Assembly: GCA_030609365.1 (NCBI GenBank)
Contig: JAUWCJ010000013.1
Coordinates: 1-33,152, forward strand
Direction: 5' to 3'
Source of the DNA: Candidatus Eiseniibacteriota bacterium
GTDB taxonomy: Bacteria > Joyebacterota > Joyebacteria > Joyebacterales > Joyebacteraceae
Length of the DNA stretch: 33,152 bases
Shown here piece after piece: positions 14,822 through 21,020 of the stretch. The notes beneath the pieces were generated by a model that did not search any database, was not told where the DNA came from, and worked only from the letters and a program-made list of their open reading frames with translations. The first letter of the stretch is position 1. Every line of letters starts with the position of its first letter. A program made the translations under genes and the position numbers.

Positions 14822-15820
14822 ATGTGCATCGACTGGAGAAGTCGTTCTCGACGACCGCTGCTGACGGCGGTTCACGTCGTGGCGGCGATGCTGGCAGCCG
14901 CGATCGTCACCGCGGCGCTCCCGGCGCGCACGAGCGAGGCGGCCGTGCCGCGTCCGGTGCACCTGTCGGGGCGAACGTGCTTCGCAAAGGGGTTCCACCT
15001 GCTCGAGGAGCTGCCGGGCACGGGTGAACTGGGCATGAGGGAGCCTGCGGCAGTGGCCATTGACCACAGGGGGAACGTGGTCATCGCGGACACCGGCAAT
15101 CACAGAGTGCTTGTCATCGGGCGCGACGGAACGCTCCTCCAGGAGCTCGGAGGCTACGGTTGGGACGCGGAGCGGCTGGACACTCCAAGCGATGTCTGCG
15201 TCTACCGGGGTTTCTACACTTACGTGCTCGATGAGGGCAATCGCCGGGTGGCTCGCTATGACGTCGAGGGCAACTACCTCGATCTGGTGATCCCGGAGGA
15301 CGGGGCAGGGAGCCCCGTGGCCATCGCGGTCGTGCAGGCCGGAGGACTCCTTCTGGTCGATACCGACACACAGTCCGTGCTGTCCTTCTCTCAGTTCGAC
15401 GAGGCGCTCGAGCCCGTCGGGTGGTTCGGCGTGGACGAAGGGGGACTACTTGCGCCCAGCGACGTGGCAGTCGGCCCCTCGAGGGAGATCGCAGTGGCCG
15501 ACCGCGGCCGGTTCTCCGTCGAGGTCTTCGATGAGTTCGGCGCCCCTCTCTACTCACTCTCGGCTCCCGACACGCTCGATCCCCGGGACGTCGCGTTCGA
15601 CGCGCGCGGGAACGTCCTTGTGGTCGACGCGCGGCACAACCGCGTGCTGGCGTTCCCCGCCGGCGGGGGCCCTCACACAGCGGCGCTCCCGGGCGACACG
15701 GGCTTCAGCCTCACTGCAATCGCACTGGGTACCGCTGGCGAGCTGGCCGTGCTTGATGGCGAGACCGGGCGCGTGCAGCTGATCGAGATTGTCTATGACG
15801 CTGATGCCCCAGGACGCTAG
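14822..15820 (+). CDS. Exported NHL-type beta-propeller protein
   Basis: This protein is about 332 residues long. ATG 14822 was chosen because GGAGA lies 8 bases upstream; GTG 14780 and ATG 14807 are longer alternatives. The N-terminus is arginine-rich, then hydrophobic (LLTAVHVVAAMLAAAIVTAALPARTSEA), so it is probably exported. NHL-like repeats follow, such as MREPAAVAIDHRGNVVIADTG, LDTPSDVCVYRGFYTYVLDEG, LAPSDVAVGPSREIAVADRG and LDPRDVAFDARGNVLVVDARH. These suggest a propeller of five or six blades. No enzyme residues stand out, so a binding or scaffold role is more likely. There is no C-terminal sorting domain. Its 3' end overlaps the next gene, which encodes a large envelope protein, so the two are probably co-expressed. 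Confidence 0.8.
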   Translation: MCIDWRSRSRRPLLTAVHVVAAMLAAAIVTAALPARTSEAAVPRPVHLSGRTCFAKGFHLLEELPGTGELGMREPAAVAIDHRGNVVIADTGNHRVLVIGRDGTLLQELGGYGWDAERLDTPSDVCVYRGFYTYVLDEGNRRVARYDVEGNYLDLVIPEDGAGSPVAIAVVQAGGLLLVDTDTQSVLSFSQFDEALEPVGWFGVDEGGLLAPSDVAVGPSREIAVADRGRFSVEVFDEFGAPLYSLSAPDTLDPRDVAFDARGNVLVVDARHNRVLAFPAGGGPHTAALPGDTGFSLTAIALGTAGELAVLDGETGRVQLIEIVYDADAPGR

Positions 15821-19232: not shown

Positions 19233-21020
19233 TTGAGGGGACCACTTCGCATCAGGGAAGCACACGACCCGCCGTGGACAGCGGGCCCGAGAGCCCTGTC
19301 CTGCGCGCGGGCTGCTCCCGCGCTGTGCGGCGCGTCCATCCTGCTTGTGGCGGTGCTCCTTCTGCTCGTGGTCTCGACGGCAGGTGCGACGCCGGTGACC
19401 CGCGCTTCCGTCGACGGGCACCAGAGTCTGCGCGCCCGTGACGTGCTGGGTATTCTTGCAGCGGATGAGGGTTCGGTCTTCGACCCCGCTGAGGTCAGCG
19501 CGGGCGTGGACTCGCTGGTCGCGTTTCTTGCCGATCTCGGTCGCCCGTTCGCGCATGTGAGCGTGTCGTGGGACTCGACGGCGGCGGGCGTAGTCGTCGC
19601 GGTGTCCATCGACGAGGGTCCCGAGGTCAAGCTGGACGATCTCACGTTCTGCGGCGTCGACACGCCGGTGCCGGATGAGTTCGTGCGTCGCCTGAAGCTC
19701 CGATCCGGGTCGCACCTGACGCGTCGTTCCCTCCTCGGAGACATAGAGGCGCTTCTGAGCGCGTACGCGGACGACGGCAGGCCTTTCGCGCAGGTGGTTC
19801 TTCCCGCGGCCGTGTGGCTCGGCGACGAGGAGGGACTCACCGGGCGGGTCGAGGTGAGCGAGGGAACCGCAACGTGGTTCGGGGACGTCGTCGTGGCCGG
19901 CAACGACGCGACGCGCGAGCACGTGATAGTGCGGGAGGCGGGCCTGGAGCGCGGAGAACCCTTCAGCCTGTCCCGGCTGTCCAGAGTGCGGCCGAGACTG
20001 GAGGGGCTCGCTTTCCTCGACGGCGTCGAGGAGCCGGTCGTGGCCGTCGACCCGGTGACCGGAGAGGCCACCGTGGGTGTCGCCGTGACCGAGGGCGCCG
20101 CGAGCCGCATATCGGGCGCCATCGGTTTCTCCGGGGGGCCGGACGCGTCCGATGAGCTCACTGTCATCGCTGATATCGAGCTTGGGAACATCGCGGGAAC
20201 AGGCAGGGCGGCTTCCGCCACCTGGGAGCGGATTCGTGAGAACCAGACCGAGATCGCGTTCGCGTACACGGAACCGTGGTTTCTGGGCGCTCCCGTGGAC
20301 GTGGGCGTGGCCGGCAGCCAGTCGGTGAGAGACACGTTCTACACGACCACCGAGGCTGAGCTCCTGGTCACGGCTCGCCTGGGCGACCGCACCAGGCTGA
20401 CCTGGTCGTTTGGGGCCGAGCGTTATGTGCCCGGCGCCGCCCACGAATCGACGTCCAGGAGCTTCAAGACGGCATTCGCCGCGACATACGACGGCACGGA
20501 TGCGCCGTGGAACCCGATGGCAGGGACCAGACTTCGGGCGAGCATCGAGTACGCCGACAAGAGGGTCGCGGACGAGGGCAGGGACGAGAGCTCGGGCACC
20601 TTCGCCGCGGAGGCCGAGCAGTTCTTCCGCCTGAGAATGAGCCAGGTCCTGGCACTGCGTGCCCGGGTCGAGGCACTGGTGAGTACGGAGGAGGACGTGC
20701 CGTTTCACGAGCTGCTCGTGCTCGGCGGGGCCCGCAGCCTGCGCGGCTACCGGGAGGAGCAGTTCCGGGGCACGCGGACGGCCCTCGGTTCGATCGAGTA
20801 CCGGCTCCTGCTCGGCAGGAGGTCGCGAGCGATCGTCTTCGTGGACGCGGGCTACTGGTACCGTGAGGGGCCTAATTTCGCGAAGGACATGAAGTTAGGT
20901 TGTGGAATCGGGTTGCGGGGTGACACTCGATTGGGTACAATCTCCATCGACTACGGGTTGGGGGAAGGGGACGACCTCCTCGACGGGAAGCTGCACGCGG
21001 GTCTGATCCGCGAATTCTGA
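19233..21020 (+). CDS. Omp85-superfamily outer-membrane protein (BamA/TamA-like)
   Basis: This 595-residue protein starts at TTG 19233, supported by AAGGAGG at 19215-19221. A 30-residue charged leader precedes a hydrophobic export segment ([18 protein letters not shown]). Two or three POTRA-like domains cover about 58-290 ([61 protein letters not shown]). The C-terminal barrel contains the family's loop-6 motif, here [11 protein letters not shown] (R504-G505-Y506), and ends LIREF. Omp85 proteins insert barrels into the outer membrane or move proteins across it. At ~595 residues it is closer in size to TamA than to a five-POTRA BamA. Its place behind a large barrel gene suggests a specialised assembly factor, but a housekeeping role cannot be excluded. 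Confidence 0.88.
20913..20941 (+). promoter_or_regulatory. Possible weak promoter inside the end of the Omp85 gene, facing ligA
   Basis: TTGCGG (20913-20918) and TACAAT (20936-20941) are separated by exactly 17 bases. The surrounding stretch is relatively AT-rich for this window. The -10 box is one mismatch from consensus but the -35 box matches only at TTG. It lies about 135 bases before the ligA start and could give that run its own transcript. Confidence 0.3.

What the first reader, a model, noticed from the sequence alone, without database searches (positions are those of the whole stretch)
14822..21020. NHL propeller, SprA-style barrel and Omp85 gene in one run: possible undescribed outer-membrane assembly unit
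An exported propeller gene overlaps an 1139-residue barrel-like protein with two GxDYxIDY motifs, followed 18 bases later by a TamA-sized Omp85 protein. A large barrel paired with its own insertase and a soluble propeller, directly behind the Por genes, could be a shortened translocon or a separate exporter. I know of no named system with exactly these three parts.
Basis: inference. Interest (0 to 1): 0.55.

Follow-up and report, generated by a model that had tools for sequence, protein, structure and literature searches.

The report
Compact SprA-like giant outer-membrane barrel unit
Three neighbouring genes encode a large outer-membrane barrel distantly related to the type IX secretion channel, a likely barrel-inserting protein and an exported propeller; the set recurs in several bacterial phyla, the barrel almost only beside a type IX channel gene in the genomes tested, and we found no described function for it.

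Summary
Window 14822-21020 encodes an exported NHL propeller (332 aa), a 1139-aa protein ("BIG") and a POTRA-Omp85 protein (595 aa). BIG is a distant SprA/Sov relative: AlphaFold on 86 sequences (pLDDT 89, pTM 0.79) gives about 38-40 membrane-length strands (my count), Foldseek's three best PDB matches are SprA chains, and profile-profile alignment matches SprA. It is not sprA: it scores 41 of 200 bits on TIGR04189, and the genome has separate sprA fragments at two contig ends. The linkage is real: outside the window's family an NHL-type gene precedes BIG in 46 of 57 loci and an Omp85-type gene follows in 34 of 52. In Bacteroidota-type genomes BIG is common (94 of 148) but mostly without those partners. 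BIG tracks SprA: 0 of 31 SprA-less genomes of that sample had it; 26 of 26 tested BIG-positive ones had SprA. TamB genes lie beside other Omp85 genes. Best reading: a second, compact SprA-type outer-membrane channel of T9SS-bearing FCB bacteria, built by its own Omp85 and served by the propeller. Fold, linkage and co-occurrence are computed; the transport role is inferred. My searches found no published description.

The parts
14822..15820 (+). Exported NHL-repeat propeller (332 aa from this ATG; signal-peptide-like N-terminus, no lipobox)
   Evidence: Pfam NHL 1.8e-22; in the upstream set a lipobox pattern occurs in 5 of 70 proteins
15795..19214 (+). 'BIG': 1139-aa SprA-related giant beta-barrel protein
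   Evidence: AlphaFold pLDDT 89.4 / pTM 0.79, Foldseek best hits SprA, hhalign to SprA E 2.8e-9
15954..16193 (+). BIG N-terminal small beta domain with motif RGVDYEIDY (about residues 1-80 of the fragment folded)
   Evidence: hhalign to SprA columns 619-686, E 9.4e-13 as a sub-profile; strands from residue 3 to 77
16320..19211 (+). BIG barrel region (fragment residues 123-1086), ends in Phe
   Evidence: About 38-40 strands, my count from the DSSP list
16779..16874 (+). Second small domain with motif RGRDNDYVIDY, between early barrel strands
   Evidence: TIGR04189 match at 16761-16922; lies in the stretch that holds most invariant columns
19215..19221 (+). Shine-Dalgarno-like AAGGAGG before the TTG start of the Omp85 gene
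   Evidence: Sequence
19233..21020 (+). POTRA-Omp85 protein (595 aa), putative dedicated insertase of BIG (role inferred)
   Evidence: Pfam Omp85 and POTRA over cut-off; below BamA and TamA equivalog cut-offs
4693..8751 (+). Context: PorU-like C25 sortase
   Evidence: NF033707 519.6 bits, cut-off 420
8816..9799 (+). Context: PorV-family protein
   Evidence: NF033709 235 bits, cut-off 90; PorV equivalog NF033710 170 of 250 not reached
9849..13040 (+). Context: M6-like protein with Por_Secre_tail CTD
   Evidence: NF052323 361 bits (cut-off 600, not reached), TIGR04183 33.9 (cut-off 23)
12902..13912 (+). Context: DUF6677-like protein (sub-threshold)
   Evidence: 20.3 of 24.3 bits
13912..14757 (+). 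Context: DUF5683-like protein (sub-threshold)
   Evidence: 18.4 of 26.7 bits

Best explanation
The unit encodes a second, compact SprA-type outer-membrane channel that belongs to the type IX secretion world. BIG is a giant barrel that shares ancestry with SprA at about half the length (computed: fold prediction, and profile matches in the N-terminal half). The co-encoded POTRA-Omp85 protein most likely inserts BIG or is its permanent partner, and the soluble propeller most likely binds BIG's periplasmic mouth as plug, gate or cargo adaptor (inferred from linkage, export signals and fold class). Because BIG is nearly confined to SprA-bearing genomes among those tested, and in several lineages sits behind porU/porV, it most likely moves, or helps hand over, a subset of T9SS-related cargo or its anchor at the outer membrane rather than being an unrelated exporter (inferred). 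In Bacteroidota-type genomes BIG usually lacks the two neighbours, so another Omp85, such as BAM, would have to insert it there (inferred).
For: VIA-align pairs 686 and 717 of 1086 residues with SprA, against at most 360 with any other chain listed. Homology: hhalign E 2.8e-9 plus further blocks; Omp85 controls negative. Separate sprA fragments in the genome. Linkage. Co-occurrence: BIG in 0 of 31 SprA-less Bacteroidota-type genomes, SprA in 26 of 26 BIG-positive ones tested (Fisher 8e-8); no full-length BIG in 15 of 15 SprA-less other genomes (recount, Fisher 0.015). TamB genes beside other Omp85 genes.
Against: No experiment, no cargo, no predicted complex. SprA is present without BIG in 23 of 54 BIG-negative Bacteroidota-type genomes, and in G014, G020, G025 and, weakly, G036, so T9SS does not need BIG. 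Two BIG-bearing genomes (G068, G085) showed no SprA. Strong porU or porV neighbours occur in a minority of loci outside the family. Structural similarity alone is weak: TM-scores 0.24-0.30, rmsd 8.4 A, and the top VIA rows are FimD, AlgE and OprD-type porins, with SprA at ranks 31 and 49. The C-terminal half of BIG has no significant profile match to SprA (E 0.0012 at best). Part of the conserved order may be plain inheritance: UbiA follows the Omp85 gene in 9 of 32 loci. Genomes are related, so the Fisher values overstate independence.
Confidence: 0.5

Rival explanations
1. BIG with its Omp85 is a T9SS biogenesis or surface-attachment module: it does not conduct cargo but helps insert SprA/PorV, or passes the anchor glycolipid to PorU/PorV.
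For: Co-occurrence with SprA; neighbours PorU, PorV and a CTD protein in several lineages; a co-encoded Omp85 in many phyla.
Against: BIG is itself predicted as a giant barrel resembling the translocon; the Omp85-type gene is adjacent in none of 20 Bacteroidota-type loci.
Confidence: 0.25
2. BIG is an exporter for something unrelated to T9SS (polysaccharide, lipid), merely common in the same bacteria.
For: Most loci outside the family have no strong porU or porV match in the flanks held; AlgE, LptD and porins are structural neighbours; a UbiA-type gene follows in 9 of 32 loci; two genomes have BIG without detected SprA.
Against: Co-occurrence with SprA and profile homology to SprA.
Confidence: 0.18
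3. It is the genome's sprA in shortened form (a reduced T9SS translocon).
For: SprA-like motifs and fold.
Against: The genome has other sprA fragments at two contig ends; 41 of 200 bits on TIGR04189; SprA was found in 48 of 50 genomes reached through BIG loci.
Confidence: 0.03
4. It is a TamA/TamB-type unit.
For: POTRA-Omp85 protein beside a large beta-rich protein.
Against: BIG has no TamB match at E up to 0.1; TamB genes lie beside other Omp85 genes on C100 and C51; BIG is predicted as a barrel.
Confidence: 0.02

Closest known systems
SprA/Sov, T9SS outer-membrane translocon (TIGR04189; PDB 6h3i, 6h3j, 8gl6, 8gl8)
   Same: Giant barrel (36 strands in SprA per PMC10994853, section 4 read; about 38-40 here by my count); DYxIDY small domains; profile blocks in the N-terminal half; BIG-bearing genomes almost always have SprA
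   Different: About half the length; about 700 residues fewer between the last two matched blocks; Omp85 and propeller genes beside it in many phyla; no Pfam or NCBIfam family above its cut-off
TamA/TamL-TamB (TAM)
   Same: A POTRA-Omp85 protein encoded beside a large beta-rich partner
   Different: The partner is predicted as a barrel, not TamB; TamB genes are elsewhere
Bacteroidota BAM complex (PMC12611786; passages read)
   Same: Outer-membrane assembly around an Omp85 protein with lineage-specific partners
   Different: None of the subunits named in the passages read (BamA, D, G, H, M, P) is a giant barrel
Two-partner secretion (TpsB/ShlB)
   Same: Weak ShlB similarity of the Omp85 protein (13 of 22.7 bits)
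   Different: Below cut-off; the neighbour is predicted as a barrel, not a TpsA exoprotein (TpsA features recalled, not tested)

Membership tests
SprA/Sov (TIGR04189) | Score above the curated cut-off of 200 bits | tested here: not met
   41.3 bits
SprA/Sov (TIGR04189) | Giant barrel fold of the SprA type | tested here: met
   Prediction with about 38-40 strands; SprA chains rank first in Foldseek. Prediction only; barrel closure not seen directly
SprA/Sov (TIGR04189) | Length about 2000-2400 residues | tested here: not met
   1139 residues; hhalign pairs BIG column 617 with SprA 894 and BIG 1035 with SprA 2001, 418 against 1107 positions
SprA/Sov (TIGR04189) | Shared ancestry by sequence profile | tested here: met
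   E 2.8e-9, sub-profiles E 9.4e-13 and 5.9e-7; the C-terminal half is unsupported (E 0.0012)
SprA/Sov (TIGR04189) | Extracellular cap as in SprA | tested here: inconclusive
   No profile match to SprA columns 895-1330; coordinates of the model not available
SprA/Sov (TIGR04189) | Binds PorV or Plug at a lateral gate and carries CTD cargo | not testable with these tools
   No complex prediction on hand
Omp85 superfamily (19233-21020) | Omp85 barrel plus POTRA domains above Pfam cut-offs | tested here: met
   88.6 and 64.6 bits
BamA (TIGR03303) | Equivalog cut-off 297 bits | tested here: not met
   125.4 bits; another Omp85 gene on C51 (832-aa frame) scores highest for Omp85
TamA (NF047950) | Equivalog cut-off 625 bits | tested here: not met
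   25.5 bits
TAM (TamA/TamB) | TamB partner gene beside the Omp85 gene | tested here: not met
   No TamB match in BIG; TamB genes are on C100 and C51
TpsB / two-partner secretion | ShlB domain above cut-off | tested here: not met
   13 of 22.7 bits
NHL propeller (14822-15820) | NHL repeats above cut-off | tested here: met
   78.6 bits, cut-off 20, three stretches

The most novel reading that the evidence does not exclude
FCB bacteria carry two SprA-lineage protein-conducting giant barrels: SprA and this compact one, which in many phyla brings its own insertase and periplasmic gate. It would be a second, undescribed translocon tied to type IX secretion and possibly closer to an ancestral, cap-less form of SprA.
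Probability: 0.35. Interest if true: 0.88.

Novelty: new variant of a known kind. Interest (0 to 1): 0.7.

Why it matters
In the T9SS passages I read, SprA is the only giant barrel mentioned. A widespread second family of giant barrels, with no Pfam or NCBIfam name in the members scanned, present in 94 of 148 Bacteroidota-type genomes sampled and in many uncultured phyla, would add a component to T9SS or reveal a sister secretion route, and would show how so large a barrel can be built with a dedicated Omp85. Because BIG also occurs in Bacteroidota-type genomes held as nearly single contigs (such as G118 and G192), it may be testable in a culturable host.

Tried and rejected
Plain 'shortened sprA': rejected, separate sprA fragments exist. 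TAM: rejected. Chance neighbourhood: rejected. An earlier idea, that genes beyond the triad are unrelated between phyla, did not survive the check: all three downstream genes scanned next to the Omp85 gene were UbiA, and a UbiA-type gene follows in 9 of 32 loci with enough flank; elsewhere the next gene differs. The DUF2460/TIGR02217 phage-tail matches are below cut-off and cover only the second DYxIDY domain; treated as a shared small-domain motif. The BIG profile against PDB chain sequences found nothing at E up to 1. The viral fold library gave no convincing whole-length match. tblastn of one Bacteroidota-type BIG against plasmids found nothing. PF12081 (GldM) found no T9SS motor gene in the own genome; a single negative, not pursued. 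Paper searches for a description: (listings with starts of abstracts only); passages of PMC11323493, PMC10994853 (and its section 4) and PMC12611786. Two were badly aimed, since 'SprA' also matches 'spray' and a Staphylococcus RNA, so absence from print is weakly supported; subscription papers are mostly not held.
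Full report
WHAT IS THERE. The window is contig C9 of a 2.78-Mb draft genome (206 contigs, 96.94% complete). The closest named records are titled Candidatus Eisenbacteria, 'bacterium' and Candidatus Effluviviaceae; NCBI taxonomy has a phylum Candidatus Effluviviacota, so I infer that lineage. Genes in order on the + strand: PorU-like sortase, PorV-family protein, M6-like protein with a T9SS CTD, two small proteins with sub-threshold DUF6677/DUF5683 matches, NHL propeller, BIG, POTRA-Omp85 protein, then ligA and thiC. The NHL and BIG genes overlap; the Omp85 gene starts 18 bases after BIG.

BIG IS PREDICTED AS A GIANT BARREL LIKE SPRA. A first AlphaFold run on 19 sequences gave pLDDT 76 and pTM 0.54. 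A second on 86 diverse sequences gave pLDDT 89.4 and pTM 0.79. Foldseek against PDB ranks SprA chains first to third with both models: E 3.9e-9 to 2.2e-8 and 4.3e-10 to 2.4e-8. TM-scores to SprA are low (0.24-0.30 by query length). With the second model VIA-align pairs 686 (8gl6) and 717 (6h3i) residues at 8.4 A, Z 15.9 and 14.2; no other listed chain exceeds 360 residues, but FimD, AlgE and OprD-type porins top that table by Z (17.8 down), with SprA at ranks 31 and 49. SprA is described as a 36-strand barrel (PMC10994853, section 4).

SEQUENCE HOMOLOGY. hhalign of 67 BIG proteins (A4) against 19 SprA proteins (A5) gives E 2.8e-9 for BIG columns 275-617 on SprA 620-894. Further blocks: BIG 130-347 on SprA 166-453 (E 2e-5; as a sub-profile of the N-terminal barrel part 5.9e-7) and a weak C-terminal block 1035-1071 on 2001-2037 (E 0.002); these run in the same order in both proteins, the first two overlapping on BIG 275-347. 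The N-terminal small domain, BIG 36-103, matches SprA 618-686 (E 5e-8; 9.4e-13 as a sub-profile), the same SprA domain that the second small domain matches, so it is a repeat rather than a collinear block. Controls against the Omp85 set gave nothing (best E 0.03). The C-terminal half of BIG alone has no significant match (best E 0.0012). So the ancestry claim rests on the N-terminal half. Between the last two blocks BIG is about 700 positions shorter than SprA.

NOT THE GENOME'S OWN SPRA. TIGR04189 finds sprA fragments on C124 (839-aa open frame, N-terminal part) and C179 (813 aa, C-terminal part); a SprA profile confirms them at E 3.5e-121 and 7.4e-171, both reaching a contig end, with profile positions 619-1242 not seen. 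That they are one gene is inferred. BIG scores far below the SprA cut-off.

CONSERVED UNIT; matches to BIG in 24 of 41 genomes (single-protein query; fragments and weak hits included); within the family 19 of 20 including the window's own (G014, 97% complete, has none); in the 17 family loci read, wherever the neighbours are on the contig, M6i, the two DUF-like genes, NHL, BIG, Omp85 and ligA keep their order, at 42-90% identity apart from cross-hits between the DUF-like pair and one edge piece. A scan of genome contigs found 510 stretches encoding relatives; the best gave 79 distinct loci, with titles that include Zixibacteria, KSB1, Calditrichota, Gemmatimonadota, Krumholzibacteriota, LCP-89, TA06, Latescibacterota, Fermentibacteria, Ignavibacteria and Chlorobiaceae. 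Of 70 upstream proteins, 60 match NHL at E up to 0.01; of 62 downstream proteins, 47 match POTRA and 45 Omp85. With profiles built from the window's family plus one outside locus (L054), and counting only loci outside that family with enough flank, an NHL-type gene precedes BIG (within 950 bases) in 46 of 57, an Omp85-type gene follows (within 600) in 34 of 52, both in 29 of 47. Misses include Ignavibacteria, Chlorobiaceae and Latescibacterota loci, several Calditrichota ones, and L128, whose Omp85 frame starts outside the limit. porV matches occur in eight loci outside the family, one of them weak and 10 kb away, and a strong porU in five. Beyond the triad, upstream genes scanned were AA_kinase and ribosome recycling factor, acyltransferase, starch synthase, a PorV-type protein (UPF0164) and one without a family; downstream, a UbiA-type gene follows Omp85 in 9 of 32 loci, spread over titles of Zixibacteria, Gemmatimonadota, Calditrichota and KSB1, so part of the order may be ancestral. 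The BIG tree clusters by phylum label (12 changes where 11 is the minimum; shuffled mean 21.4).

BIG IN BACTEROIDOTA-TYPE GENOMES. In 148 genomes of the phylum of G090 (the genome of L135, titled Ignavibacterium sp.; the set also holds G061, titled Bacteroidota bacterium; the phylum itself is not named), 94 have BIG at E up to 1e-20, nearly all full length. Of 20 such loci read, two have an NHL-type gene directly upstream and none an Omp85-type gene adjacent. Seven such proteins were scanned with NCBIfam and four with Pfam: no family above its cut-off.

CO-OCCURRENCE WITH SPRA (my marker for T9SS). I tested all 54 BIG-negative and 26 of the 94 BIG-positive genomes of that sample: 26 of 26 BIG-positive have SprA; of the BIG-negative, 23 have it and 31 do not. 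Fisher p 8e-8, which ignores relatedness. Among the 21 non-family genomes G020-G040, full-length BIG occurs in three (G022, G026, G028), all with SprA; of the other 18, G020, G025 and G036 have SprA at E 1e-10 (G036 only at 8e-11, but a SprA profile supports it at 1.3e-12 in a 1915-aa frame) and 15 do not (Fisher 0.015). G023 has short BIG-profile matches only (E 4e-7). G014 has SprA but no BIG. Exceptions the other way: G068 and G085 have BIG but no SprA by two searches, apart from BIG's own small domain in G068; their completeness was not told.

OTHER OMP85 AND TAM. Six Omp85 matches occur in the genome. TamB-family genes lie beside the Omp85 genes on C100 and C51, so the window's Omp85 is a further member with BIG as neighbour.

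MECHANISM, MARKED. Computed: fold class, distant SprA ancestry, conserved linkage, co-occurrence with SprA. Inferred: Omp85 as dedicated insertase, propeller as periplasmic gate or adaptor, passage of T9SS-related cargo. The window's propeller has a signal-peptide-like start without a lipobox; a lipobox pattern occurs in 5 of 70 upstream proteins.

VERDICT. A real, conserved and, as far as my searches show, unnamed unit: a compact SprA-related giant barrel with partners, tied to SprA-bearing bacteria. Function open.

Noticed in passing
L054:766-3447 (genome G028): An 893-aa open frame with PorV matches carries a long internal insert with repeats that look propeller-like (LWVGTEAGVWRF-type), so PorV and a propeller may be fused there, upstream of BIG in the same locus. 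Not checked with a family search.
   Followed up: partly
own genome (G000): Seven PorV-family matches over the NF033709 cut-off but no GldM match with PF12081: T9SS without a recognisable motor protein, or a very diverged one.
   Followed up: partly
L071, L073, L075, L076, L083, L088, L089, L090, L134, just after the Omp85 gene: A UbiA-type prenyltransferase gene follows NHL-BIG-Omp85 in 9 of 32 loci across several phyla; in L089 a D-Tyr-tRNA deacylase comes next. Ancestral order or a functional tie is open.
   Followed up: partly
window 12902-14757: Two adjacent small genes, DUF6677-like and DUF5683-like, cross-hit in tblastn and may be a tandem duplication; they travel with the unit in several phyla.
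   Followed up: no
window 9849-13040: M6-like protein with FG-GAP repeats and a T9SS CTD, matching NF052323 (T9SS-dependent inactivated M6) below cut-off; conserved next to porV in the family.
   Followed up: no
G036:C19:2246-5278: A 1915-aa open frame with weak SprA profile matches: perhaps a further diverged member of the giant-barrel lineage.
   Followed up: no
G000:C51:6896-13444: The Omp85 gene with an 832-aa open frame lies next to a second TamB-family gene, besides the Omp85-TamB pair on C100.
   Followed up: no
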